Positions 8,338-63,051 of a DNA stretch of 64,000 nucleotides are shown one piece after another. Below the pieces are notes generated by a model. The model saw only the letters and a program-made list of their open reading frames with translations. It searched no databases and was not told the DNA's origin. A program made the translations under genes and the position numbers. Position 1 is the stretch's first letter. Each line of letters opens with the position of its first letter. Origin of the DNA: Truepera sp. bin119 (lineage in GTDB: Bacteria > Deinococcota > Deinococci > Deinococcales > Trueperaceae); assembly GCA_002239005.1 (NCBI GenBank), contig MPNL01000005.1, positions 1 to 64,000 on the forward strand, in the 5' to 3' direction.

Positions 8338-8921
8338 CGTGATTCTCTCCCGATCGACTCCGCCTCTGCGGAAGCCTTCCCCAGGCTGCCCGGCTGTGGC
8401 AGAGCGCGGGTTTCCGAGTGATGTACGGGGAAATCCCAAAGCCGGGATGCCAAAAAGCCCTGACGTCCCCTCATCGACGTATGGAAGGTATGCTACTATA
8501 TCAGACTGGCTACTAGGCAAGTTGCCGCTTGAGAACAGGCTGTCGTGCCGCTTTACCGGCACGGAGTTCTCGACGCTTTAGTTCCGGTGTGCTCTTCCCC
8601 TTAACCTGGTAGCCTCAGGGTTTTCTCGACACCAGCGAGCGGTTCGAAATCCATTTCTAAGGAGCGTTCCAATCTTCGATTCGCCAGCTAAAGAGTGTTC
8701 CCTCCAGTCTCCCGTCTGCGCCGGTGGTGTGTGGCGGCGATCTCCTCTGCTCTGCCCGCCCCGTGATCCGGTGCAGGTAAGGTTAGGTGATTGCATGGCG
8801 TAGCCTGAGGCTGGTATGGTGCCCCGCAATCGCTCGCTGCATTCCAGAGGGCACCGATCATTGCAAACAGATAATGGGGATTAGGCGACCTAGAGCGAAC
8901 TTTACGATAGAGGAGATATAG
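8338..8921. other. Divergent intergenic region
   Basis: About 584 bp between two divergently transcribed units, the M20 operon (minus) and ABC importer 1 (plus), so it should hold promoters for both. No protein-like frame stands out and I could not identify a convincing -35/-10 pair. The plus-strand gene has a clear GAGGAGAT ribosome binding site right at 8910-8920. Confidence 0.45.
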
Positions 8922-16518: not shown

Positions 16519-16900
16519 CCGGGACCTGCACACCCTTGAGCCGCTCTGTCACCACGTGCTTGAGCGACCCGTTACGGCAGGACCCCGCCCGGTGGCGGGG
16601 CAACATCGTCGGCGACCGGGGGGGGGCGATCCCTTGGGCGTCGTGCCGGGCGGGGGGCCTTGGGGCGGGGGGCGGGCGGGGGCCCGCCGGAGGTGCGCGA
16701 TCCCTTGGGCGTCGTGCCGTGCGGTGGTCTTGGGGCCGGTGCCGGCGAGGCTACTCGCAGAAGGTTCGGGGAGCGGTTGCGGGTGCCGCCTGGGCCTAGC
16801 ACCCTCTGTCTCCTACCGGTCACTCAAGCAGCTGCGGTCGGCTCATGAAGTCTGTCATGTGTCACAATCGCTCAAGTCAGGTTTGGGAGGTGAGGCCCGC
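16519..16900. other. G-rich intergenic region with imperfect 71-bp tandem duplication
   Basis: About 380 bp without a gene. Two copies of CGATCCCTTGGGCGTCGTGCCG start at 16627 and 16698 (71 bp apart). The first copy continues into a G-saturated sequence (runs of 5-7 G), while the second continues as ordinary-looking DNA. This may be a real low-complexity tract or an assembly defect; if the latter, promoter or coding sequence for the permease downstream could be affected. Confidence 0.5.
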
Positions 16901-49222: not shown

Positions 49223-49951
49223 ATGAGAATGAGATTTTTGGCTCCGCGTGGCGAACATGCAAGGGTGCGCTTTCTGGATAGCCTGCATGGTGCGCTTGTC
49301 AACGCCTGGACTGCGTGCGGGGCACGCGGGACTGATGTAGTTGGGAGTGATGCCAGCAACTGGTCTTTTGGTGCAGTGGGGACAGCGACACCCAAAGGCT
49401 TTACCGTGAAATCTGTAGTGGTCGGCACAGAAGGGGGACCACTGGAGCCGGTGCTTGGCCATCTAGTTCCCGAAACCGTTCGTAAGATGTCAACTAACGG
49501 AGACGTGGTGGACCTTTCAGCCTGGGACAGGACTGTTGAGGAGCTTCCAGTCGTCTGTCGACCGGGAGAAACTGCGACCCTGCCAGCAATTATGCTCTCG
49601 CCGCTTGTCCTTTCCGTGCGCGGTCGGAAAGGACGCTGGCACGATGATCTGATGAAAGTCGGGACCGATCTAGAGGATGCCGTGAACTTCCGACTGTCAC
49701 GCCTGACGGGTCGCGACGTGAAGCTGAAGGTCGAACCCGACAGATTGTATCTGCGAGCAAATCCGAGGCATTCGACGTTGGTGCGCACGCGCGCCGTGCG
49801 CGGTGGTAGGCCCGCTTTTGTGATCGGCCTGATGTGTCCGCTATCCATTAGCGGCCGATACGATGACCTGCATTCCGCCTGGACCCTCGGGATCGGTGAG
49901 AAAAACCGCTACGGCTTCGGCTGCATCGGGTACGCAGGGAGGCTTGCATGA
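49223..49951 (+). CDS. cas6: Cas6 crRNA-processing endoribonuclease
   Basis: First gene of the type I-D operon; a 242-residue RAMP protein that cuts the repeat RNA to make crRNAs. The C-terminal glycine-rich loop WTLGIGEKNRYGFGCIGY matches the Cas6 signature (GxGxxxxxGFG), and the two halves each look like a ferredoxin-like fold. The catalytic histidine cannot be assigned with confidence. The ATG lies after CGGAGATACAGC. The stop overlaps the cas10d start (ATGA). Confidence 0.88.
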   Translation: MRMRFLAPRGEHARVRFLDSLHGALVNAWTACGARGTDVVGSDASNWSFGAVGTATPKGFTVKSVVVGTEGGPLEPVLGHLVPETVRKMSTNGDVVDLSAWDRTVEELPVVCRPGETATLPAIMLSPLVLSVRGRKGRWHDDLMKVGTDLEDAVNFRLSRLTGRDVKLKVEPDRLYLRANPRHSTLVRTRAVRGGRPAFVIGLMCPLSISGRYDDLHSAWTLGIGEKNRYGFGCIGYAGRLA

Positions 49952-52917
49952 GCACCCAAGCAGCCGAGTTCGTGCACCAGACGGCCGTCGAAGTCTACGG
50001 TGCCTTCCTGGACGAGTGTGTTGTTTCACGAGTCATTGAGGATCGCACCGGCCCCAAGGGAAAGATCTCGCTCACAAGGATCGATGGTCGGCCTGTTCGC
50101 TTGGTGACGATAAGCGGCAAGGGGGGATACTCGACAGACCCGGAGTTGGCGGAGCGCTGGGGGCACAACGACAACATCAGCCTGCTCGATCATCTGCTCT
50201 CGGTGGCGCGTGGGGCACTGATGTTCTGGCTCGCTGATGCCCTACGTCCCTGGTCGGATGAGGAGCATGTTGCCGAGATCGAATGGCTGGCCTATGCGGT
50301 AGTCTGCATTGCCTTCCTCCACGACATCGACAAGGACCTTGACTTGCCACGTGGCAAGGAGATCGATGTCACTGACGTTGAAGAGCGGATGCACCGCTAC
50401 GGGATCGACAAGTTCCTGACAAGCCATCATATTAGTATCTCACCTGCCGCGATGCTCAACTACATTGAACAGGTTGAAGGCACTCAGGCAGCCCGGAGTC
50501 CCGCTGCTCCCGACTACGACCGACGAATCGCTGCGACCTGTCGTTACGTCGAGCTGGCTGACAAGCTCGAGGGTAGTTTTACTTCCGATGGAGTTGATGG
50601 CTTACTTTCTGAACTTCACAATCGAAACGCCCTTTTTCCTGTACTTCAGGACAGTGAATTGGGGGAATGGGCGAAGGTAGAGATCCACGATCATCTCCAT
50701 GTCTTCCTGCTGGACCGCTTCCAGCGAGCACTCTCCGAAACTTGCAAGGCGATCACCGGGTATTCGCCGTTGATCGAGATTGTCCACGACGGTCGGCTGC
50801 TCTGCCTAGTGCCACGAGAACAGGCGGACAAGGTAAAGAAAGTTGCCCTTGACAGTTTTCTCAGGGATCTCCCCTATGGTCTGCGCTTTGCGGTCAACAA
50901 CCGGTTGGCGTGCGAATTCGTTGGTGGTGCTGCGTCGTGGGAGGTGTGTCGGGATGTCATGTATCCTCGGCGGGGCAACTGGAGAGAGTTTGCCAATCTC
51001 TTGGCACTTCCCAGGTCTTTTGCGCGCGAGCGCTACAGGGAGATTGATGAGTTGTTCGAAGCTGCGGGCATGACGACATCCTGGAGCCCGCTCGACCCTG
51101 ACGCGTCTGGAGCGACCGTGAAGCCAGCGCTCGATCACCCAGGGGGAGACGCTGGTGACTTGGGCATGGAGCCAGCGCACGCCGTCGCGTTCCTCACGAT
51201 TGCCCTCAACCATAAAGATGCCTCGGTCAAGACGGCAGCCCCGGATGCGGATTGCCGCGAGCGGGAGTTAGTGGAGAACTTGCGGGCTAGAGGCAAGGAA
51301 CCGCCACCGGTTGTTGCGTCAGCTCCCGAGAAGGATGCACGTGCGCGTCGCGTTCTGCTGGCGCTGTGGACGATAGGAGAAGTTTGGCGGCTTTCCGAGG
51401 AGGACTCTGACGAGGCGAAGGTGATGCTGGACGCGATCCTCGGTCGAGAAGGTCTCGTCGGGCTTTGGTTAGAGGGCGACGATAGTCGCCGCGGTCTCCA
51501 ACATCAAGTCGAGGATGTTGCGAGTGACATCTTGAATGCCCTGTGCGCCCGTTTCTCCGCGTATCTGTCTGAACGCCCGGCGCTGCCATTTGATACCGAG
51601 ACTCCGGCGAAGCGCTGCATTCTGTGTAACGAGCCAGTCACTGTGAAACGACGTATCGATAGCGCGTCCCAGGCACACGGTGTCAAAGTGTCGGCATTTT
51701 CCGGCCGCGACGGTCGAAACGACCACTTGGCCTCCTCGAAGGGCGACACTCATTTATGTCTGGTCTGCCTTGCCGAGTTGCAACTGCGACAAAAGGCGCA
51801 GAGTGACTTCAAAGGAAGTGATGATCTGCCACCGCTCATCTCTTCGCCGGTGACCGTGGGGCTGTTTGGCGGGTTGGCCTTCGATCACGAAGACTCTGGA
51901 GTGTCCATGGGGTTGTTTGACCTCAATCGGCTGGAGATCAAGAAAGGCATCGTGTATAAGGGGCTCGATTGTCACATGCGGCGCATCCGCGTCGCGCGGC
52001 TGGAAGCGCTGCCGAATCGGGACGCCGAACTCGTTGTCCACCTGCATTTGGTGTTGAGGGCAATAAGACGCCTCGGACGCCCGATCCACATCTTCCGCGG
52101 GGCACCGCGCCGACACCCAGCAATTTTCTATTCCGATGCGTTACCCGCCTGGCTGGAGAAGTTACTGGATAAAGATTTCCAGCGCACGAATTCCTTGCGC
52201 ATTGAGCAGATTCCTAAGGCCATTTCCAGATTGGAACTTTTTGGACATCTGGCCGCTGCGACCGGGCTAGGAATCGAATGGGCCAAACAGCTGGCCTATT
52301 CCGACACCGAGCTCGGTGCTCTATGCGTCGCCTGGGCACTAGCGGTTGACCGACGAGGCGATGGAGACAAGGATCATGCGTGGTCACTGATCGAAAAAAG
52401 AACGCGCGAACGCATCAAAAATACCGGAGGTGAACCAGTGAATCTGAAGGACAGCCAGGACCCACTTAGCCGACTCGCGTGGCTCGCGAGTCGAATCCAG
52501 AAGCGTATCGGCATAGGTGCCTCTACTAGCAAGCAGCTTCTCTGCTGGAAGGCCGCTTTGGGCTTCTACCCGAGCACGCTACGTTCGATAACACAGGATC
52601 GGGATGCTTTAGTCCAGGGGCTTGCAGGCACGCTATATGAAGAACTCACGCGCAAGGGCGACCAAGGCGCCAACGAACATCGCGACAATCAACCGCTTGA
52701 TCAGGCTTGCATCGATTTCGCAGCCCACTTCGCGGATACAGTCTGGCCCAAGGTTTTCCGATCAAAGGAACCAACCTCGCAGGAGCAGCGCCGAACCGCG
52801 GCGATTTACCGCTTTAGGCTTCTGGAAGCATACCGTGAGCGTGACATCTCCGAAACGAGGGACGATGCACCCACCGATGACGAAACTTCGGAAGCCTATC
52901 TGGATGGCCAGAGCTGA
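49948..52917 (+). CDS. cas10d: Cas10d (Csc3), large subunit with HD nuclease
   Basis: Signature protein of type I-D, 989 residues. The N-terminal HD nuclease that in I-D replaces the HD of Cas3 is seen as SLLDHLLSVARG (H82) and AFLHDIDKDLDL (H125-D126). A zinc finger follows at about residues 557-610 (CILC and CLVC pairs). The C-terminal part from about residue 831 is the small-subunit-like helical domain, see the separate Cas11d entry. It serves as large subunit of the Cascade-like effector and supplies the DNA-cutting activity. It overlaps cas6 by 4 bp; csc2 follows 14 bp downstream. Confidence 0.92.
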   Translation: MSTQAAEFVHQTAVEVYGAFLDECVVSRVIEDRTGPKGKISLTRIDGRPVRLVTISGKGGYSTDPELAERWGHNDNISLLDHLLSVARGALMFWLADALRPWSDEEHVAEIEWLAYAVVCIAFLHDIDKDLDLPRGKEIDVTDVEERMHRYGIDKFLTSHHISISPAAMLNYIEQVEGTQAARSPAAPDYDRRIAATCRYVELADKLEGSFTSDGVDGLLSELHNRNALFPVLQDSELGEWAKVEIHDHLHVFLLDRFQRALSETCKAITGYSPLIEIVHDGRLLCLVPREQADKVKKVALDSFLRDLPYGLRFAVNNRLACEFVGGAASWEVCRDVMYPRRGNWREFANLLALPRSFARERYREIDELFEAAGMTTSWSPLDPDASGATVKPALDHPGGDAGDLGMEPAHAVAFLTIALNHKDASVKTAAPDADCRERELVENLRARGKEPPPVVASAPEKDARARRVLLALWTIGEVWRLSEEDSDEAKVMLDAILGREGLVGLWLEGDDSRRGLQHQVEDVASDILNALCARFSAYLSERPALPFDTETPAKRCILCNEPVTVKRRIDSASQAHGVKVSAFSGRDGRNDHLASSKGDTHLCLVCLAELQLRQKAQSDFKGSDDLPPLISSPVTVGLFGGLAFDHEDSGVSMGLFDLNRLEIKKGIVYKGLDCHMRRIRVARLEALPNRDAELVVHLHLVLRAIRRLGRPIHIFRGAPRRHPAIFYSDALPAWLEKLLDKDFQRTNSLRIEQIPKAISRLELFGHLAAATGLGIEWAKQLAYSDTELGALCVAWALAVDRRGDGDKDHAWSLIEKRTRERIKNTGGEPVNLKDSQDPLSRLAWLASRIQKRIGIGASTSKQLLCWKAALGFYPSTLRSITQDRDALVQGLAGTLYEELTRKGDQGANEHRDNQPLDQACIDFAAHFADTVWPKVFRSKEPTSQEQRRTAAIYRFRLLEAYRERDISETRDDAPTDDETSEAYLDGQS
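52438..52917 (+). CDS. cas11d: Predicted Cas11d small subunit from internal start in cas10d
   Basis: Inside cas10d, GGAGGTGA (52426-52433), a near-perfect Shine-Dalgarno, is followed by GTG at 52438, in the same reading frame (codon 831). This would give a separate 159-residue protein starting VNLKDSQDPLSRLAWLASRI, helical and without the HD domain. In studied type I-D, I-B and I-C systems, small subunits are made by exactly such internal initiation within the large-subunit gene. So the sequence signal and family knowledge agree, though translation is not shown here. Confidence 0.65.
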   Translation: MNLKDSQDPLSRLAWLASRIQKRIGIGASTSKQLLCWKAALGFYPSTLRSITQDRDALVQGLAGTLYEELTRKGDQGANEHRDNQPLDQACIDFAAHFADTVWPKVFRSKEPTSQEQRRTAAIYRFRLLEAYRERDISETRDDAPTDDETSEAYLDGQS

Positions 52918-52931
52918 TTAAGGAGGCAGTA

Positions 52932-53930
52932 ATGATTGACAAGTTCATGCAATACCTCAACGACGGCGATCTCATCGAGGAAGTGGTCGCAGCCAATGGC
53001 AAGGACACCTATCTGATGCCTGTGCGCCGCAATGCAGGACACGTAGCCATCGCCGTGATCCGCGAGATCGTGGCCCCCACGGTATTTCGCAATGCAGAGG
53101 AGGAGATCACGGACATTGAGGATCGCGACGGTGTGCGCCGTATACGGGCGACGCCGAGTAAGTTCAAGTTTGGCGAGCGTGGGCGGGGGTTGCTGGTGTT
53201 GCGCGCGTGGAATGTGGGCGGCCGGCTGCCACAGAACCGCACTGCGGTAGGTGAGCGCATGCCGATTAGTAGAGCGCTCGACTTGAACACGCTGGTGTTT
53301 GGGGACTCTGCCATGTCAGGGACTCGCGTCCTACCGGTGAAGGCTGCGGTGCAATACTCCGATGCATTAAGCACGGTGCCGTACCGTGACGGCGTGGGAG
53401 AGAGCTTCCACCACCGGGGAGATGAAACCGGAACACTGTGGGATGCGGAAGGGAAGAAGAACACTGAGAATCTCTTCACTCGCCACTATGTCCTGCCCGG
53501 CACTCTTCTAATACAGGTTCTAACCAGCAACGGTCGGCAACTCCCGCCCATCGGTTTCGATCACCTGTTGCTCAGTCTCGGGCTCGCTGGCTCCTACGGA
53601 GGACAGACATCCGTCACCGGTGTCAACGTGCGCACCCATATCGCCGGGATCTTCGCTGCACGCCTTGAGGTACCAATCTCCTCACCGTATGAGCTGTTGC
53701 GATCACTCCCAGAGACCAGTTCAGTAGACGATCTCGCATCTGCCGTCTTGCAGGAAATGTCGGGGCACTACCGGGTCCACGCGGATGCGAACGAAGCATC
53801 AGCCTATCAGCGACAACTTGTTGGGGCATTCGAGGAGGAGGATCTCGAACTGCAGGAACGGTATGAGGAAGCCGCTCCGAAAGTCGCTGATATGTTCGAA
53901 CGATACTTCGAACCCAAAAAGAGGGTGTGA
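52932..53930 (+). CDS. csc2: Csc2 (Cas7d), backbone subunit
   Basis: A 332-residue RAMP of the Cas7 family that forms the helical backbone on the crRNA spacer in type I-D complexes. Start MIDKFMQYLNDGDLIEE after AAGGAGGCAGTA. Family-like segments are RNAGHVAIAVIREIVAPTVF, then LDLNTLVFGDSAMSG, and a central block HYVLPGTLLIQVLTSNGRQL typical of Csc2. Its GTGA overlap with csc1 implies coupling. Confidence 0.88.
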   Translation: MIDKFMQYLNDGDLIEEVVAANGKDTYLMPVRRNAGHVAIAVIREIVAPTVFRNAEEEITDIEDRDGVRRIRATPSKFKFGERGRGLLVLRAWNVGGRLPQNRTAVGERMPISRALDLNTLVFGDSAMSGTRVLPVKAAVQYSDALSTVPYRDGVGESFHHRGDETGTLWDAEGKKNTENLFTRHYVLPGTLLIQVLTSNGRQLPPIGFDHLLLSLGLAGSYGGQTSVTGVNVRTHIAGIFAARLEVPISSPYELLRSLPETSSVDDLASAVLQEMSGHYRVHADANEASAYQRQLVGAFEEEDLELQERYEEAAPKVADMFERYFEPKKRV

Positions 53931-54598
53931 CAGGGGTGATCCATGAGTATCGACTGACCACGCTGGCACCTTGGGCATGGCATGGCCTCGCCGTGCCCTC
54001 GGGCACAGCGACCCTCAATGACATCGTGACCGATACGGCGATGGCGTTCGCGACTGCTGCCGCACTCGGTATGGTATGGCGTTCACCGTGTCTGCCGGTC
54101 GCGCCCGACTATCGCAGTCATCTAGCCTCCCTACCATTCAAGACGACTCTGTTCCTCGGGCACGATAACCGGCTCAACCGACCGTTGGCGCGCCGCCTCA
54201 ACCTGGATGCCGAGTGCGGTATGCCAAAGGCCATCCACGACGCGCGAAGTAGTGGCAACATCAAAGACTACTACCACATCCAGGAGGTTACCGCGGGCTC
54301 GGTCTTTCATGGTTTCTTCCTACACGCGGACCCACTCCGCCTCGCACAAGAAGCCTATGGTGAACGGGTCGACCGACTCGTCGTCAGGCTTGGTCTCGGC
54401 CGCGCTGGCGTCGGCCTCCTTGAACGCTGCGCGTCGCAGCACGATATCTGCCTCAACCTACACACGGCACGGCTGTTCGACCCCGATGTTCATTTGGAGG
54501 CGGGGCCGTACCGCCTCCATAACATTCAACCCAGCCGACCACTCGATCCCGACGAGGCGTTGCGGATCACTGCTGCCTGGTCAGGAGGGCAAGCCTGA
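53927..54598 (+). CDS. csc1: Csc1 (Cas5d-position) subunit
   Basis: A 223-residue RAMP in the Cas5 role, binding the crRNA 5' handle in type I-D complexes. The N-terminus reads IHEYRLTTLAPWAWHGLAVP, the Csc1-like opening strand, with YYHIQEVTAGSVFHGFFLHA in the middle. The start is GTG at 53927, overlapping the csc2 stop; another GTG at 53936 is possible. It overlaps cas3' by one base. Position between csc2 and cas3' and length support the call. Confidence 0.82.
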   Translation: MTGVIHEYRLTTLAPWAWHGLAVPSGTATLNDIVTDTAMAFATAAALGMVWRSPCLPVAPDYRSHLASLPFKTTLFLGHDNRLNRPLARRLNLDAECGMPKAIHDARSSGNIKDYYHIQEVTAGSVFHGFFLHADPLRLAQEAYGERVDRLVVRLGLGRAGVGLLERCASQHDICLNLHTARLFDPDVHLEAGPYRLHNIQPSRPLDPDEALRITAAWSGGQA

Positions 54599-56649
54599 TG
54601 ATTATCCGAGCTCACTCAGTACCGACATTGGCAAGCGGCTTGTCACCGATGCAGGAACGTCTACTTCGCTCCGAGAAGTTTGTACGCCTTGTATCTGCAC
54701 CGACAGGCTCTGGGAAGTCCTATGCCTTTATGCGGGCGGTGCTCAACGAGAACGCGTCTGTGCTGTTCATTGTTCCCACCAAGCGTTTGCTGCAAAACCT
54801 GATTGACGATGCGCACGAACAGGCAAAGGAGTTGCTGAGGAAAGAGAAGCGAGGTTGGACAGAAGCTCAGATCAATGCTTGGGCCAAGGAACGGATTGTC
54901 GAATGGTCGGGTAATCAAGATAAGGCTGGATATCAGAGTCTACAGGTTAGGCGAGTTAGGCAAGTGCTTGAGATGGGTGAAGGCTGGGGTGGCGGAGTCA
55001 TCTTCGCGATTCCCGAAGTGGTAGTCAAGATGATCTCTGGTGTTCATATCAAGGGGGCGAGTACGATCAATCCCTTCCATTACCTGCGCACCTTTGATCA
55101 TGTGGTCTTTGACGAATTCCACACCATTGATGGTCGATCTTTTGGGTTGGCAAGCCTGTTTTCACTGTTGGCTGTCACAGAGAGGCAAGGGAAGGTTTCA
55201 CTCCTGTCGGCAACTCCGATTGATGTGACCAAGATCCTCGAGCAACTAGGTGTTGATGCAGAGGACGTTGAGCAGATTGTCGAGAATGTTGTTGCCGGCC
55301 ATCCATCAGGACATCGCCCAATTCACGGGGACGTAACGCTTGAGCTACGTGAGTGCTCTCTGGCCGAGTCGTTCGCTCTAGGAATCGACGACGTGCGTGC
55401 GTCAATCGACCGTGGCCGCACTGTGGTTGTCATTTTCGATTCCTTGGCACGACTCAAGAAGGAGGAGTCGATAATACGGGGGGCGCTATCTGAAATCGGA
55501 GTTTGGGACGACAGGGTTCTTGCAATCAACTCAATTGATGATTCGGAGCGGAAATCAGGTGAGCCGCGCCGTGGACGACAATATGCAGACCCCCGGAAAT
55601 ACGATGTGCTGCTATGTACGTCTTCAGTTGAACTTGGGGTTACCTTTCAAAGCGATCTCATGTTTATAGACCCCGGTCACGAGATTGCCAGCTTTGTACA
55701 ACGCGTTGGTCGGGTCGCTCGCGGCAAATACAACGGGCGAGTCATTGTGTCACTGCTTGAAAGTCGGCGTAATCGCGATGCTTGGACTCGGATAATTGCC
55801 AGTGTCATTGAGAATCATGAAGAGTTGGATATTGAGATTTTCGTAGAGAAGATTCTCCGTGATATTCGACGCTGTCTTGAGCCGACACGAAAGGAGGTAG
55901 AGGCAGATCCCATGGTAGGGGGATCGACAATATCGTTTTTTCGGAAACCTTCGTGGCGGGGAGCGAACTGGGCTGCCCTGTTCATTGTTGCGCTTCAGCG
56001 GAAGGATCATCAGAAGGAAGCGAATAAGCGCTTGCGTAAGATATCGCCGAATATCGTAAAGTTTGTCGGTGCCAAGATCAGGGAGATATTGTCGGTCGAT
56101 GTGGTGGACGATTACCTACCGAGGAAGTCCCAACCGCACAAGCGATGGGTCACTGCGCTGCTTGAAAGTGCCCTCGCCTATCGCGATATCGGGGCAATGA
56201 TTGAGGTCTATGATCCGAATGGCACAAGTCATATGGTGACGGAGTCGCAGCTGCGTAGGGCAACGGATATTCTTGATCGGCACATTGTTTCCGATGAGGA
56301 TGAAGGACGAGTCGTCAGGCTTATGTCGCGGACACTCGATGAAGAGATCAGGGTGTTTACTGAGAAGCCTCGTGTTCAGATGATGGCGCTGTACGTTCGC
56401 TCACCAATAGGTGACAAGGGCTTCGAGCTTTTAATCCGGGAGCGAGATAAGGGGAAAGAGCGACTTTATCGAAGCCTAGTTGAAGAGTGGAAGCATCAAT
56501 TTCGCCGATACATTCCTGCGAGAGGAGATAATAGTAATGATCCTCGCAAGAAGGTAATGAGAGCAGCGACTGCCCTGGTGGAGCGTCTCGGCAGGCCACC
56601 CCTGGAGGAAGACTATGAGGGTATTGGAGAAAGCGCGATATTTGCGTGA
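54598..56649 (+). CDS. cas3: Cas3' helicase (no HD domain)
   Basis: A 683-residue superfamily 2 helicase that unwinds target DNA during interference. Motifs in order: Walker A VSAPTGSGKSYAF (about 33-45), DExH box VVFDEFHTIDG (about 170), SAT motif LLSATPID, and motif VI FVQRVGRVARGKYNG. No HD nuclease domain is attached, as expected in type I-D where it is in Cas10d. GGAGGG precedes the ATG. The 3' end overlaps cas4 by 35 bp. Confidence 0.92.
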   Translation: MIIRAHSVPTLASGLSPMQERLLRSEKFVRLVSAPTGSGKSYAFMRAVLNENASVLFIVPTKRLLQNLIDDAHEQAKELLRKEKRGWTEAQINAWAKERIVEWSGNQDKAGYQSLQVRRVRQVLEMGEGWGGGVIFAIPEVVVKMISGVHIKGASTINPFHYLRTFDHVVFDEFHTIDGRSFGLASLFSLLAVTERQGKVSLLSATPIDVTKILEQLGVDAEDVEQIVENVVAGHPSGHRPIHGDVTLELRECSLAESFALGIDDVRASIDRGRTVVVIFDSLARLKKEESIIRGALSEIGVWDDRVLAINSIDDSERKSGEPRRGRQYADPRKYDVLLCTSSVELGVTFQSDLMFIDPGHEIASFVQRVGRVARGKYNGRVIVSLLESRRNRDAWTRIIASVIENHEELDIEIFVEKILRDIRRCLEPTRKEVEADPMVGGSTISFFRKPSWRGANWAALFIVALQRKDHQKEANKRLRKISPNIVKFVGAKIREILSVDVVDDYLPRKSQPHKRWVTALLESALAYRDIGAMIEVYDPNGTSHMVTESQLRRATDILDRHIVSDEDEGRVVRLMSRTLDEEIRVFTEKPRVQMMALYVRSPIGDKGFELLIRERDKGKERLYRSLVEEWKHQFRRYIPARGDNSNDPRKKVMRAATALVERLGRPPLEEDYEGIGESAIFA

Positions 56650-57151
56650 GTTGGCGGAGGAGTTCAACCTTCACGGGCTCTACTTCCAGCATGCCGCTCT
56701 GTGTCGTCGGCGTGCTTGGCTCCATCTTATGGGTGCCACGCATGCCGTACGTGATCCGCGGGTACGCAGAGGGCTCGCGCTTCATAAGACAGAGAAGCGG
56801 TCCGGCGATGTCCCCAGGGGTCTTGGCATCGCACCGGATGGCATCAACTTTGAGCGGTGCATCGTTATAGAGAAGAAAGGCAGCGCTGGGGCGCGCGAAG
56901 CGGTTTCCCGGCAAGCCTTGTTCTACGCAGCATTCATGACTGCAGCCACCGGCGACCTTTGGCGCGCCGAAGTTCAAGTGTATGGATCGCGAAAAAAGAC
57001 GATCTACGATTTGACAGTAAGCATACTCGACCAGCTCATCTATGACGCGCAGGCCGGACGCGTTCTGATGGATGGGCCACCTCCCCAAGCGAAGCGGATT
57101 CCCCTCTGCCCTGCCTGTAGTTGTAACCTGCTCTGCTGGGATGAGGAGTAA
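56615..57151 (+). CDS. cas4: Cas4 nuclease
   Basis: A 178-residue RecB-like nuclease that trims prespacers and sets PAM and orientation during adaptation. It has a first cysteine in QHAALCRRRAWLHL, the active-site stretch CIVIEKKGSAGAREAVSRQA (ExK), and the C-terminal cluster CPACSCNLLCWDEE for the iron-sulfur site. It sits directly before cas1, as in adaptation modules. Start ATG 56615 lies inside the end of cas3'. Confidence 0.88.
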   Translation: MRVLEKARYLRELAEEFNLHGLYFQHAALCRRRAWLHLMGATHAVRDPRVRRGLALHKTEKRSGDVPRGLGIAPDGINFERCIVIEKKGSAGAREAVSRQALFYAAFMTAATGDLWRAEVQVYGSRKKTIYDLTVSILDQLIYDAQAGRVLMDGPPPQAKRIPLCPACSCNLLCWDEE

Positions 57152-57152
57152 C

Positions 57153-58121
57153 ATGGATGTAGTCATCATCCCGCGCGATGCACGCCTCAATCGGAACGAA
57201 AACGCGCTCGTCGTGACCTCTGATTCGGGGCGCAAGGTCATTCCCCTGAATGGCATCAAGCACGTCCTGTGCATGGGCAACGGCTCCATTTCCATCCGCT
57301 TGCTCAAAGATATGGGTCGAAAAGGAATCCGCTTCACAGTCCTTGATGGAGGTGGTGGTTTCCTGGGTGCTTTCGAACCGGAGGATGACAATCCTTCCGG
57401 TCGGGTACGCATCGGACAGGCCGCGTTGTTTTTGGATGAGACTGCGCGCCTGAGGATTGCCAGGGCAATCGTTAGTGCACAAGTGAGGTCGATGCGCGGA
57501 TTGCTGCAGCGCTATCGTCGCAACGGCACAACTGGCCTTGACTCGTCGCTAGGTGGCTTGGAGAGCGCAATCGACATGATTGGGAGAGGAGCTAGCATTG
57601 AGGCTCTGATGGGTGCCGAAGGACAAGCTCGGGCGTTTCTGCACGATGCCTTCGGGCGAATCTCGCACGATGCTAGACTGGAACGCAGAGTCCGTCGCCC
57701 GCCGCCGGACCCCGTCAACTGCCTGATGTCTTTCTTTAACATGCTGCTTTACTCCGCGTGTGCAAACGAGCTTGCCAAAACTCATCTCGACCGAAGTATC
57801 TCGTTTCTCCATGCGCCGGGAACGGGGCGACGTTCGCTCTCAATCGATATGGCAGAGACCTTCAGGCCAGTGATGTCGGACGCGCTCATCCTATCCGTGT
57901 TCCGGCGTGGTCAAGTCGATAGCTCCTGGTTCAGCAGGACTCCGGGGGTGTGCTTGCTCAGTGAGAAGGGAAGGATCAAGGCGACTGAACGTTTCTGGTC
58001 GCGCATTGAGGAGCGAAGTGATAATCGCACCCTCCGCCAAGCGATTCATCGGCAGTGCTTATCCCTGGAACGGGAGGCACTTGGTGTTGGGCAGTTCAAG
58101 CCGTTCGTCTGGAGGGGGTAA
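57153..58121 (+). CDS. cas1: Cas1 integrase
   Basis: A 322-residue Cas1 that integrates new spacers together with Cas2. Active-site positions are seen in GAEGQARAFLHDAF (glutamate), then SISFLHAPGTGRRSLSIDMA (histidine), then ETFRPVMSDALIL (aspartate). The open frame starts at 57072 inside cas4. ATG 57153 (MDVVIIPRDARLNRNENALV) with GATGAGGAGTAAC upstream and a 1-bp gap to cas4 is the natural start. Confidence 0.93.
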   Translation: MDVVIIPRDARLNRNENALVVTSDSGRKVIPLNGIKHVLCMGNGSISIRLLKDMGRKGIRFTVLDGGGGFLGAFEPEDDNPSGRVRIGQAALFLDETARLRIARAIVSAQVRSMRGLLQRYRRNGTTGLDSSLGGLESAIDMIGRGASIEALMGAEGQARAFLHDAFGRISHDARLERRVRRPPPDPVNCLMSFFNMLLYSACANELAKTHLDRSISFLHAPGTGRRSLSIDMAETFRPVMSDALILSVFRRGQVDSSWFSRTPGVCLLSEKGRIKATERFWSRIEERSDNRTLRQAIHRQCLSLEREALGVGQFKPFVWRG

Positions 58122-58124
58122 CAC

Positions 58125-58424
58125 GTGTTCGTGGTAATCTCTTATGACGTCCCTGCCAAGCGAACAGAAATTTACAAGAAAGTTCTGAAGGAGTTTCTTG
58201 TACATGAGCAGGCATCAGTTTTCATGGGTGACTTGCCGGAGTCGGAACTTATCAAGTTGGTGGCAAAGATCTCGGAGAAGATCGGTCCCGAAGACCGAGT
58301 GCTGAAGCTCGTGTGCCGAAATCGGCACAACGTAGAGGTACGTAGGCTCAGCAAGGATGCTCTTGGTGGACCAATGCGTCAGGACGAGGACAAGTGGCAT
58401 GGTCAAGACTGGTCTATTCTCTGA
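58125..58424 (+). CDS. cas2: Cas2
   Basis: A 99-residue Cas2, starting MFVVISYDVPAKRTEIYKKV (beta strand with the D of the ferredoxin-like fold). It bridges two Cas1 dimers in the integration complex. GTG start 3 bp after cas1. Last gene of the cas operon; the array starts 129 bp downstream. Confidence 0.92.
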   Translation: MFVVISYDVPAKRTEIYKKVLKEFLVHEQASVFMGDLPESELIKLVAKISEKIGPEDRVLKLVCRNRHNVEVRRLSKDALGGPMRQDEDKWHGQDWSIL

Positions 58425-58553: not shown

Positions 58554-61437
58554 GTTTCCGATCCCCATGAGGGGTAATGAGAGGACGCCGTCTATGAAGA
58601 TCCCCGACAAGATCACCATCGCGTAGCCGACCCATGAGGGGTAATGAGAGGACGCCGTGACCGCCAGCGGCCAGGACCCCCGAAAGTTTCCGATCCCCAT
58701 GAGGGGTAATGAGCCGCACGGACCCTCTGTGGTATGTGGGGGATTCAGGAGTTTCCGATCCCCATGAGGGGTAATGAGGAGTTGGCCGGCAGCGGCGACT
58801 TCACCCTGGCCGAGACCCGGTTTCCGATCCCCATGAGGGGTAATGAGTCATATGTTTTGCCCGTGCCCCTGCCACCGTAGACGAGTTTCCGATCCCCATG
58901 AGGGGTAATGAGTTTTGGACCGGGGTAAATGGACCTCTGACAGGCAACCGAGTTTCCGATCCCCATGAGGGGTAATGAGCCTTGCAGCTCCCTGGCGGAT
59001 GCCAAAGAGTTGGCTGGTTTCCGATCCCCATGAGGGGTAATGAGTGGTCTACTGGCTCGGCTGGCTCAAGGCCGAACTGGAGGTTTCCGATCCCCATGAG
59101 GGGTAATGAGTGGCTCGACTACCTGGGCACCCGGCTCGGCATCCGGAGGGTTTCCGATCCCCATGAGGGGTAATGAGTTCCCATCCTTTGATGCTGGCCT
59201 CAGTGGAGGTGGACAGTTTCCGATCCCCATGAGGGGTAATGAGATCCGAGGTGGGCAGCTCCAGGGTGGGCCGGGAGGGCAGTTTCCGATCCCCATGAGG
59301 GGTAATGAGCATGCCCCCTGAGCGGACCAAGACCCACGCTAAGGCCGTTTCCGATCCCCATGAGGGGTAATGAGTCGGATGTTTGGAGGATACCGATAAT
59401 TTCATCTTCTGGTTTCCGATCCCCATGAGGGGTAATGAGTAATCTGACCGCCAGCGGCCTTCGTTCTGGGGAATCCGGTTTCCGATCCCCATGAGGGGTA
59501 ATGAGTACGCCTCTTTCGCGGAGTTTCCGATTGAGGCAGGAGTTTCCGATCCCCATGAGGGGTAATGAGCTGCTGTGAGACTCTTCATTATCCTCGCCCT
59601 GGTCCTGTTTCCGATCCCCATGAGGGGTAATGAGGTACTCGGTGTAGGTGGTGGAAGAGAAATTGGCCCCTGTTTCCGATCCCCATGAGGGGTAATGAGG
59701 GTGAACTCTCGGCCAACATCGCCGCGGCCGCGACCTGTTTCCGATCCCCATGAGGGGTAATGAGGTTTAGGACCAACTTCGAGCGCAATGCAGCTATTGA
59801 GAGTTTCCGATCCCCATGAGGGGTAATGAGACCGGAGGGAATAGGGTCTACGAGATTAGCCTAGGTAGTTTCCGATCCCCATGAGGGGTAATGAGGTCCT
59901 GACCGAGGACAACTTCCAGGTGGTCAATCGCGTTTCCGATCCCCATGAGGGGTAATGAGGACGGAGTGAATCACACGATCCTGATGAGTCGGGGTGCAGT
60001 TTCCGATCCCCATGAGGGGTAATGAGTCCAACCACCGGCCCTTCGTGGTCGAGGACCGCGACCCGTTTCCGATCCCCATGAGGGGTAATGAGCACGGATA
60101 GAGACTCGGTTCCGCGATTTCGTAGTACCGTTTCCGATCCCCATGAGGGGTAATGAGACTGGTGCAGATCGATCGTGCGGAGCCTCTCAACTGGTTTCCG
60201 ATCCCCATGAGGGGTAATGAGATGGTGATTGTGGGGCCTGATGGGGAGCACCTCACCGTTTCCGATCCCCATGAGGGGTAATGAGATCTACGGTGACATG
60301 GCCATCCTGGAGGCCATCTGATGTTTCCGATCCCCATGAGGGGTAATGAGTTAGAAGCCACCGTCGATCCCAGGGACAATAGCGCCTGTTTCCGATCCCC
60401 ATGAGGGGTAATGAGCAGGTGCGGATTGACCTCGACGGTGACGTAACGGCGGTTTCCGATCCCCATGAGGGGTAATGAGTGGATAGAGGCCGCTGGGTAG
60501 AAAGGATTAACGCATGGTTTCCGATCCCCATGAGGGGTAATGAGTCGACGGGCGTCACGACTCGCCGGCGACCACGATTAAAGTTTCCGATCCCCATGAG
60601 GGGTAATGAGTTCCGGGACCTGCTCACCAATCCGCTCTCGAGCGCGCGTTTCCGATCCCCATGAGGGGTAATGAGCGCTGTTCCTCGGCGAGGTCGACCC
60701 CACCGGCGGGCGTTTCCGATCCCCATGAGGGGTAATGAGTGCTCGAAGCGGCCGTGGTTGTAGCTGCGATTGGCGAGGTTTCCGATCCCCATGAGGGGTA
60801 ATGAGTGACACATTGTCAGGTGGTGAACTGTCAGGTGGTGTCGTTTCCGATCCCCATGAGGGGTAATGAGCGGACCATCCGCCAGCTCGAGACCGCTGGC
60901 TCGAATGGTTTCCGATCCCCATGAGGGGTAATGAGAGGTACAGCCCCGAGCCCAAGTGGTGCGACACTCTCGTTTCCGATCCCCATGAGGGGTAATGAGG
61001 TTTATGACCCTGATCTGCACTCCAGGGTTGCCCGGGTTTCCGATCCCCATGAGGGGTAATGAGCAGAACGAGGGGCTTGGCACTGTCTGGGTCTCCGACG
61101 GTTTCCGATCCCCATGAGGGGTAATGAGGTCTGACCTGTCACAACGTCACTCCCGCCTTGGCAGCGTTTCCGATCCCCATGAGGGGTAATGAGTTAGCCG
61201 CGTGCTTCGTTTTGAAGTACCCATGCCAGGGTTTCCGATCCCCATGAGGGGTAATGAGTTACGATAGACCTTATCCCCCGGCTCCGGTGGATCATGGTTT
61301 CCGATCCCCATGAGGGGTAGTGAGCGGTAGTAGTTCGTGGGAGGGCCCTGGATATTTACAGTTTCCGATCCCCATGAGGGGTAATGAGCAGTCGCCCTTG
61401 CTAAACCCTTCCCCTTTACTCGGAGTTTCCGATCCCC
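58554..61437. CRISPR. CRISPR array, 45 repeat units, 28-nt repeat
   Basis: Counted units start at 58554, 58623, 58686, 58751, 58820 and so on to 61361 and 61425. The repeat begins GTTTCCGATCCCC and ends GGGGTAATGAG, with a CCCC/GGGG hairpin around ATGA. Spacers are 36-41 bp where measured. Exceptions: unit 2 (58623-58648) is 26 nt and changed in its left half; unit 43 (61297) has one substitution (GTAGTGAG end); unit 45 (61425-61437) is cut after 13 nt. Orientation is unresolved. Read on minus, the repeat ends GGGGATCGGAAAC, like common 5' handles, and the degenerate unit 2 would be at the trailer. Read on plus, cas2 would be next to the leader and the truncated unit would be the trailer. Confidence 0.97.
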
Positions 61438-62145: not shown

Positions 62146-63051
62146 GTGGTGACCGCGACCGCCAAACGCAAAGTCGGTCACTACCTTCAACGGACACACA
62201 ACCAAGGTCGGACTCTTCGGGTTGGCCAACGCCGAGCCTGCCGACTCATGGGGATGAGCCGATCAAGTTATCGCTACCAGAGTCGGCGGGATGACTCCTC
62301 GCTCCTAGCTAGGTTGAAGGTCTTGGCTGAGCAGCGACCACGATTCGGGTACCGGAGATTGCATGCCCTGCTGAGTCGTGAAGGAAGGGTGGTGAACCAC
62401 AAACGGGTGTATCGGCTCTACCGTGAGGAGGGGCTCACCTTACCTTGGAGAGGACGAAAACGCCGGGCGGCAGCCAAGCGAGTGCCGCTCGAGCGGCCAA
62501 CTGGGGTGAATGAGCGCTGGAGTGTGGATTTCATTCATGATCAACTCGGATCTGGGTCAAGGTTCCGGGTGCTCAATGTGGTGGACGATTTCAGTCGGGA
62601 GTGCCTGGCCTGCGAGGTCGACTCGTCTCTACCTGGGGAGCGGGTGGTCCGGATCCTGGATCGGCTGGTCGACTCGCGGGGCAAGCCTGGCTCGATCGTG
62701 TTGGATAACGGGCCGGAGTTCGTGGGTAGGGCCATGGACCGGTGGGCGTACGGGCATGGGGTCAGGCTCTCTTTCATCCCCCCTGGGAGACCTTTGGAGA
62801 ATGCATTCGTGGAGAGTTTCAATGGTCGATTGCGCGACCCGAAGAGTCGGCTTGTCGAGTGCTTGAACTTGCACTGGTTCATGAGCCTGGCCGAAGCTAG
62901 GAGGGTGATTGAAGAGTGGCGCCTCGACTACAACCAGCAGAGGCCGCACAGCAGTTTGGGATACCTGACGCCAGCAGAGTTCGCAAGGTCGGACTCTTCG
63001 GGTCTGAACTCTCAAGCTCAGTGTAGGCTGGACTTGAGAACGGAAGTTTGA
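62146..63051 (+). CDS. IS3-family OrfB transposase (DDE), with inserts
   Basis: A 301-residue integrase-like catalytic half. DDE residues: D128 in ERWSVDFIHD, D187 in IVLDNGPEFVG and E223 in ENAFVESFNGRL, with the usual 35-residue D-E spacing. It contains three 6-codon inserts relative to the family wording as remembered: within HNQGRTLRVGQRRACRL, within RLRDPKSRLVECLNLHWF (expected RLRDECLN), and RSDSSG near the C-terminus. The DDE set is intact but the second insert lies just after the catalytic glutamate helix, so activity is doubtful. Confidence 0.88.
   Translation: MVTATAKRKVGHYLQRTHNQGRTLRVGQRRACRLMGMSRSSYRYQSRRDDSSLLARLKVLAEQRPRFGYRRLHALLSREGRVVNHKRVYRLYREEGLTLPWRGRKRRAAAKRVPLERPTGVNERWSVDFIHDQLGSGSRFRVLNVVDDFSRECLACEVDSSLPGERVVRILDRLVDSRGKPGSIVLDNGPEFVGRAMDRWAYGHGVRLSFIPPGRPLENAFVESFNGRLRDPKSRLVECLNLHWFMSLAEARRVIEEWRLDYNQQRPHSSLGYLTPAEFARSDSSGLNSQAQCRLDLRTEV
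62204..62221. repeat. 18-bp insert, copy B (in orfB)
   Basis: AAGGTCGGACTCTTCGGG, inverted relative to copy A and identical to copy D at 62985. Confidence 0.7.
62838..62855. repeat. 18-bp insert, copy C (in orfB)
   Basis: CCCGAAGAGTCGGCTTGT, same orientation as copy A, four differences from B/D. Deleting it gives RLRDECLN, the usual family wording. Confidence 0.65.
62985..63002. repeat. 18-bp insert, copy D (3' end of orfB)
   Basis: AAGGTCGGACTCTTCGGG, identical to copy B. It encodes RSDSSG after TPAEFA, where the family's conserved part ends. Confidence 0.6.

What the first reader, a model, noticed from the sequence alone, without database searches (positions are those of the whole stretch)
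52426..52917. Internal Shine-Dalgarno and in-frame GTG in cas10d predict a separate Cas11d
Seen: GGAGGTGA at 52426-52433, 4 bases, then GTG at 52438 in frame with cas10d (codon 831), giving 159 residues to the shared stop. Known: type I-D, I-B and I-C small subunits are made by internal initiation inside the large-subunit gene. Inference: this locus does the same, so annotation as a single protein would miss a subunit of the effector.
Basis: partly seen in the sequence, partly recalled or inferred. Interest (0 to 1): 0.75.

Follow-up and report, generated by a model that had tools for sequence, protein, structure and literature searches.

The report
Hidden CRISPR small subunit inside cas10d
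One CRISPR gene very probably makes two proteins, the large subunit and, from a second start site inside the same gene, a small subunit that annotation misses; the trick is already known from related systems, and here it is traced into a distant branch of them.

Summary
The reading is well supported by computation and untested by experiment. Among 35 Cas10d genes of this lineage (31 of the other 34 are 29-36% identical to the window's), all 35 carry an in-frame start with a Shine-Dalgarno match 18-22 residues before one invariant Gln. Over all landmark-and-offset windows tried, the best place elsewhere in the gene reaches 12 of 35. The product folds with confidence (pLDDT 90.9). Its five best PDB matches are all type I-D Cas10d or Cas11d (Z 16.0 over 129 residues), and its start lies about two residues from Met830, where Synechocystis Cas11d begins. 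Internal translation of Cas11d is published for type I-D, so this is a new member of a known kind.

The parts
49948..52917 (+). cas10d (type I-D large subunit, HD nuclease at the N-terminus, Cas11 domain at the C-terminus), 989 aa
   Evidence: PADLOC Cas10_Id E 2.6e-231; predicted fold best matches 7sba_I, Foldseek E 4.3e-12; H82, H125 and D126 invariant in 35 genes
52426..52433 (+). internal Shine-Dalgarno sequence GGAGGTGA
   Evidence: read; identical in L006 and L020 while most other synonymous sites have diverged
52438..52440 (+). internal GTG start codon of cas11d (codon 831 of cas10d)
   Evidence: start+SD 18-22 residues before the invariant Gln851 in 35 of 35 genes
52438..52917 (+). cas11d, nested in frame in cas10d, 159 aa small subunit (inferred product)
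   Evidence: AF2 pLDDT 90.9; top five PDB hits are type I-D Cas10d/Cas11d; Z 16.0 to 7sba_I 835-975
49223..49951 (+). cas6
   Evidence: PADLOC Cas6d E 2.6e-67; Pfam Cas_Cas6_C above its gathering score
52932..53930 (+). cas7d / csc2
   Evidence: Pfam Csc2 42.0 bits, cut-off 25.5; NCBIfam TIGR03157 37.4 bits, cut-off 38
53927..54598 (+). cas5d / csc1
   Evidence: PADLOC Cas5d E 1.2e-57; no NCBIfam or Pfam hit
54598..56649 (+). cas3' helicase (separate from the HD domain)
   Evidence: NCBIfam TIGR03158 73.7 bits, cut-off 69.1; PADLOC Cas3d E 4.6e-122
56615..57151 (+). cas4
   Evidence: PADLOC Cas4d E 4.6e-41
57072..58121 (+). cas1 (ORF as listed; the true start may lie further in)
   Evidence: NCBIfam TIGR00287 cas1 203.7 bits, cut-off 71.7
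58125..58424 (+). cas2
   Evidence: NCBIfam TIGR01573 25.8 bits, cut-off 24.5
58554..61324 (+). CRISPR array, 28-nt repeat GTTTCCGATCCCCATGAGGGGTAATGAG, about 42 copies, spacing mostly 64-69
   Evidence: family of 42 copies; not all rows are printed

Best explanation
cas10d of this type I-D locus is a gene within a gene. Ribosomes starting at 49948 make the 989-residue large subunit. Other ribosomes bind GGAGGTGA at 52426 inside the same mRNA, start at GTG 52438 and make a separate 159-residue helical small subunit, Cas11d, which is also the C-terminal domain of Cas10d. Free Cas11d copies would stack on the Cas10d C-terminus along the crRNA-Cas7d filament and help hold the displaced strand during target recognition, as proposed for Synechocystis. 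Shown here: the sequence, its retention across the lineage, its placement at the domain boundary, and a Cas11d-type predicted fold. Inferred: that initiation happens, that the free protein enters the complex, and its role.
For: Exact SD, spacing and frame. Landmark test: start+SD 17-23 residues upstream of Gln851 in 35 of 35; at the same offset the best of 81 other landmarks has 5 of 35; with every offset from -60 to +60 at all 82 landmarks (9,922 windows), the best elsewhere is 12 of 35. Column test: start+SD at one column in 29 of 35 and within two columns in 34 of 35; best elsewhere 12 of 35. Synonymous constraint: of 96 amino-acid-conserved 5-codon windows in window/L006/L020, only 827-831 has at least 4 of 5 identical codons. 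SD strength over 35 loci: mean -9.19 kcal/mol, against -5.71 (sd 0.40, lowest of 1000 draws -6.91) when synonymous codons are resampled. Turnover with the signal kept: L007, 68% identical over Cas10d, has lost GGAGGTGA but has an insertion with AGGAG, eight bases and ATG two columns away. Fold. Profile match to nine canonical Cas10d: 203 columns, probability 80.2, E 1.4e-5, start region included. Positive control: Synechocystis Cas11d is residues 830-975 of its Cas10d, and the same scan finds AAGGA nine bases before that ATG830. The start region is more open than cas10d background (0.503 vs 0.396, sd 0.063; 2 of 45 background points as high).
Against: No expression data. The offset and SD rule of the landmark test were set after seeing the site, and no hold-out sample was found. 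Sequence searches found no PDB relative of either protein, so identity as Cas11d rests on fold and profile. Foldseek E for the small product is only 4.3e-3 (0 of 202 matches at or below 0.001), and helical bundles score high easily (note; archaeal Cas10d only Z 7.1-7.5). Against Synechocystis alone the profile probability is 5.6. The peptide G-G-E itself tends to encode an SD: window p is 0.034-0.041 when the protein is kept; singly, only 4 of 35 loci by match length and 6 of 35 by energy fall at or below 0.05. In three-codon windows the block is not unique: 3 of 213 are fully identical, 827 among them. A stronger SD for Cas11d than for Cas10d, as a 2:1 stoichiometry might suggest, holds in the window but in only 13 of 32 loci (the cas10d value was the best of several possible starts, which biases against).
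Confidence: 0.92

Rival explanations
1. The SD-GTG is a chance by-product of a Gly-Gly-Glu linker; only full-length Cas10d is made, and its C-terminal Cas11 domain is the only copy.
For: Keeping the protein, resampled codons give an equal or better site in 3-4% of draws for the window, and most loci are singly unremarkable.
Against: 35 of 35 genes have start+SD at the place, against at most 12 of 35 anywhere else; the eight residues before the start are variable, no residue being in more than 17 of 35 at any position; L007 has another SD and ATG there; the identical five-codon block stands out.
Confidence: 0.05
2. The conserved Met (31 of 35) is kept for protein structure or as a linker residue, and the purine-rich codons before it reflect conserved Glu/Lys, without internal translation.
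For: In 28 of 35 loci the SD lies in the same phase, often over Glu-Glu or Lys-Glu.
Against: Four loci have Val and in all four the codon is GTG, though GTG is 27-42% of Val codons in those genes; three of the four are close kin, so this is two cases. Candidate starts in canonical Cas10d include TTG and GTG; the mean SD energy exceeds what the encoded residues give; the position lies in a loop of lower confidence between helices.
Confidence: 0.03
3. A small subunit does exist, but it arises by proteolysis of Cas10d or from another nearby start rather than GTG 52438.
For: Fragmentation of Cas8b was once suggested for Methanococcus, as told in a passage of PMC11899642.
Against: No other in-frame ATG/GTG/TTG lies within 25 alignment columns of this site in the window; SD and start codon occur as a pair in all 35 genes.
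Confidence: 0.04

Closest known systems
Type I-D Cas11d of Synechocystis sp. PCC 6803 (7SBA/7SBB; pSYSA)
   Same: In-frame internal start near the 3' end of cas10d; 146 residues starting at Met830; SD-like AAGGA nine bases before; same fold as the window's predicted product; start equivalent to about two residues.
   Different: The window uses GTG with a longer SD; the Cas10d sequences are too far apart for a PDB sequence hit; gene order differs (cas3' first and cas6 after cas5d in Synechocystis; cas6 first and cas3' after cas5d here).
Cas11b and Cas11c made inside cas8b / cas8c
   Same: Small subunit from an internal start in the large-subunit gene (passages of PMC11899642, which also reports Cas11b in Haloferax).
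   Different: Other large subunit (Cas8; no HD domain, recalled) and other subtype; not compared by sequence here.
Other type I-D loci of the same lineage (plasmids of Thiothrix fructosivorans, Roseomonas marmotae, Paracoccus liaowanqingii; genomes and MAGs such as Lamprocystis, Desulfamplus, Entotheonella)
   Same: Internal start with SD at the same place. Gene order cas6-cas10d-cas7d-cas5d-cas3'-cas4-cas1-cas2 fits the annotation of L003 and L004, and of L005 up to cas3'; gene order in the other loci was not examined.
   Different: Mostly ATG instead of GTG, and SD matches of 4-8 bases; Cas10d is 'hypothetical protein' in the three annotated plasmid records.

Membership tests
[quoted passage not shown]
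   PADLOC Cas10_Id E 2.6e-231; fold match to 7sba_I E 4.3e-12; H82, H125, D126 invariant (their role as HD residues is recalled)
[quoted passage not shown]
   TIGR03158 73.7 bits over its cut-off 69.1
[quoted passage not shown]
   Pfam Csc2 above its cut-off, NCBIfam Csc2 just below (37.4 of 38); PADLOC Cas5d E 1.2e-57, no NCBIfam or Pfam hit for Cas5d
Cas11d small subunit | internal in-frame start near the 3' end of cas10d with ribosome-binding site | tested here: met
   (sequence only)
Cas11d small subunit | small-subunit helical fold shared with the Cas10d C-terminal domain | tested here: met
   (predicted model, not a solved structure)
Cas11d small subunit | sequence similarity to characterised Cas11d | tested here: inconclusive
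   no PDB sequence hit to a relative; hhalign probability 5.6 against Synechocystis alone, 80.2 against a nine-member profile
Cas11d small subunit | made as a free protein and present in Cascade | not testable with these tools
   needs proteomics, ribosome profiling or complex purification

The most novel reading that the evidence does not exclude
The internal cas11d start is one homologous site inherited from before the split of the type I-D lineages, a relic of a once separate cas11 gene fused to cas10. It has outlived almost all sequence similarity of the protein around it, while the SD and start codon themselves are replaced locally (as in L007) under selection for two products from one gene.
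Probability: 0.5. Interest if true: 0.5.

Novelty: new member of a known kind. Interest (0 to 1): 0.38.

Why it matters
Anyone who clones or annotates this system as one cas10d protein may lose a subunit. PMC10212523 (passage) tells of editing in eukaryotic cells that failed without separately supplied Cas11, but also of a Microcystis type I-D system that edited human cells without it. The test across 35 loci extends the feature to a lineage whose Cas10d is 'hypothetical protein' in the three annotated records seen, and gives a position and a sequence rule by which Cas11d could be annotated automatically. It also bears on the published idea (PMC10212523) that cas11 fused to cas10 and kept its start site.

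Tried and rejected
Sequence search for known relatives: Pfam and NCBIfam gave nothing for Cas10d or its C-terminal part, and PDB sequence searches gave nothing relevant. Single-protein scans of genome and viral contigs, alignment scans of viral contigs and a search of phages with one relative, L028, found no relative; two more relatives as plasmid queries found only the same three records. Own class and phylum: 111 genomes each, the same listed rows, only the window's own genome matches, so no hold-out sample of relatives could be drawn there.

Stoichiometry idea (the Cas11d SD should be stronger than that of Cas10d): true in the window, true in 13 of 32 loci; dropped.

A second cluster of start+SD about 646 columns upstream (12 of 35; near window residues 284-289) is the best control and was not pursued further. 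At the fixed 17-23 offset no landmark other than Gln851 exceeds 5 of 35, but that offset was fitted to the site, so the fairer control is the 12 of 35.

Rows dropped before the counts: of 36 loci, L029, L035, L037 and L041 (C-terminus not held) and L033 (same plasmid as L003); with L003-L005 and the window this leaves 35. They form 18 clusters at 60% identity, so they are not 35 independent cases. L036 is the one miss of the column count, because the scan took GTGA first; it has an overlapping GAGG and counts. For canonical Cas10d I fetched 9 of the 13 records (left out: three near-identical Synechocystis records and Kovacikia, a partial match in a record without annotation).

Not read: McBride et al. 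2020 (not held); what I say of it comes from passages in PMC10212523, PMC9123187 and PMC11899642. Of PMC12669027 I saw passages only. Papers holding Cas11d with Shine-Dalgarno and cas10d: 0; Cas11d with proteobacteria: 0; none of the 10 listed of 29 holds Thiothrix. So I found no report on this lineage in that library, which lacks most subscription journals.

Full report
WHAT IS THERE. The ORF lies in a type I-D locus that looks complete: cas6, cas10d, cas7d, cas5d, cas3', cas4, cas1, cas2 and an array of about 42 28-nt repeats.

IS IT MORE THAN CHANCE? In the window alone the case is moderate. GGAGGTGA occurs six times on the two strands; only here does a start codon follow after 2-6 bases, and the copy at 16886 has GTG after 7. 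Gly-Gly-Glu favours such a motif: resampling synonymous codons gives as good a site in 3.4% (energy) or 4.1% (match length) of draws. The comparative tests are what decide.

RELATIVES. tblastn found three plasmid relatives of 30-34% identity, fetched as L003-L005. An alignment of four Cas10d retrieved 36 loci from genome records. After dropping four with the C-terminus not held and one duplicate, 35 Cas10d remain, the window included. Each has an in-frame ATG or GTG with an SD-like stretch within three columns of codon 831; the chosen starts are 31 ATG and 4 GTG. Counting start codon plus SD core over 33,559 internal codons gives 253 hits; 29 of 35 genes share one column, 34 of 35 fall within two columns, and the best cluster elsewhere holds 12 of 35. 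Because an aligner may pull Met to Met, I repeated the test with distances to residues conserved in at least 34 of 35 genes. At 17-23 residues upstream of Gln851 all 35 have start+SD; the best of the other 81 landmarks at that offset has 5 of 35, median over all 0.5. That offset was fitted to the site, so I then let the offset run from -60 to +60 at all 82 landmarks (9,922 windows): the site keeps 35 of 35 and the best place elsewhere has 12 of 35. The start-to-Gln distance is 18 in 22 genes, 19 in 8, 20 in 3 and 22 in 2. The genes are related (18 clusters at 60% identity), so the counts are not 35 independent events, and no hold-out sample could be drawn.

CONSTRAINT BELOW THE PROTEIN. Among window, L006 and L020, 531 codons (Met and Trp left out) keep the amino acid and 138 of them are identical in all three. 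Of 96 five-codon windows with the protein fully conserved, only 827-831 (GGA GGT GAA CCN GTG) has at least four identical codons; of 213 three-codon windows three are fully identical, at 75, 151 and 827. Over 35 loci the anti-SD energy averages -9.19 kcal/mol, against -5.71 (sd 0.40; lowest of 1000 draws -6.91) with synonymous codons resampled; singly, only 4 of 35 (match length) or 6 of 35 (energy) reach 0.05. L007 (68% identical over Cas10d) has lost GGAGGTGA, though a GTG stays at the column, and carries an insertion with AGGAG, eight bases, ATG two columns away, which looks like local replacement of the signal. All four Val residues at the site are GTG, though GTG is 27-42% of Val codons in those genes; three of the four are close kin.

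WHAT THE PRODUCT IS. The 159 residues, folded with 32 relatives, give pLDDT 90.9 and an almost wholly helical model. Foldseek's five best PDB matches are 7sba_I, 7sba_J (Cas11d itself), 7sbb_I, 6thh_C and 6yes_A, all type I-D (E 4.3e-3 to 0.28, probability 0.93-1.00; none at or below 0.001). VIA-align gives Z 16.0, rmsd 2.6, 129 residues, model 8-140 on 7sba_I 835-975; archaeal Cas10d give Z 7.1-7.5 and the first row outside type I-D Z 5.7. Full-length Cas10d (pLDDT 83.5) matches 7sba_I with E 4.3e-12. Synechocystis Cas11d in 7SBA is residues 830-975 of its Cas10d. The profile alignment places Met830 at the consensus Met of this lineage, two residues after the window's GTG (weak by itself, probability 5.6, E 0.0068; the same pairing), and the structural alignment extrapolates to the same place within about two residues. 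With nine canonical Cas10d as a profile the match over 203 columns has probability 80.2 and E 1.4e-5. Of those nine, 8 have an in-frame start with an SD match of 4-7 bases giving 144-169 residues; L045 does not (I picked these from the listed starts).

WHERE THE START FALLS. In the full model the start lies between helices 810-824 and 839-850, with lower confidence in the blocks 821-830 (64) and 831-840 (78). Local folding makes the region more open than cas10d background (0.503 against 0.396, sd 0.063, 45 points).

HOW IT WORKS. Shown: signal, conservation, predicted fold. Inferred: two initiation sites on one mRNA give Cas10d and free Cas11d; the copies line the belly of Cascade beside the Cas10d C-terminus, as in Synechocystis (two Cas11d per Cas10d, PMC9123187 passages). 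A stronger internal SD than that of Cas10d itself is seen in the window but in only 13 of 32 loci, so SD strength alone does not set the ratio.

KNOWN OR NEW. Internal translation of Cas11d is published (PMC9123187 passages; PMC10212523 passages and section 13; PMC11899642 passages, for Cas11b). PMC10212523 states that it appeared widely conserved across four Cas10d lineages, one mostly of 'other bacteria'; whether that includes this lineage I could not check, as the primary paper is not held. So this is a new member of a known kind.

Noticed in passing
L003, L004, L005 (plasmid records); window 49948-52917: Cas10d, and the gene in the Cas5d place, are deposited as 'hypothetical protein' in these three records; Pfam and NCBIfam miss the window's Cas10d while PADLOC finds it.
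   Followed up: partly
window 57072-58121: Cas1 scores best with the type I-B model (TIGR03641, 220 bits) and less with the I-D model (TIGR04093, 151 bits), both below their cut-offs, which hints at a different origin of the adaptation genes.
   Followed up: no
L007 around 8470-8510: In a Cas10d 68% identical to the window's, GGAGGTGA is replaced by an insertion carrying AGGAG and an ATG two columns from the window's GTG.
   Followed up: partly
window cas10d residues 557-560 and 604-607: The window has two CxxC pairs (a possible zinc site) of which Thiothrix, Roseomonas and Paracoccus keep only the first cysteine (alignment).
   Followed up: no
window genome G000: The Cas10_Id family is in 1 of 111 genomes of the window's class, its own; the nearest kin found are in other MAGs (Vicinamibacterales, Entotheonella, Binatia), which would fit horizontal transfer.
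   Followed up: no
window 58554-61324: CRISPR array of about 42 near-identical 28-nt repeats, the copy at 61297 with one change; the first two listed repeats are followed by the same 10 bases.
   Followed up: no
window 62146-63051: ORF downstream of the array that looks like an IS3-type transposase by eye; not searched.
   Followed up: no
cas10d alignment, about 646 columns before the internal start; near window residues 284-289: A second clustering of start+SD in 12 of 35 genes; cause not examined.
   Followed up: partly
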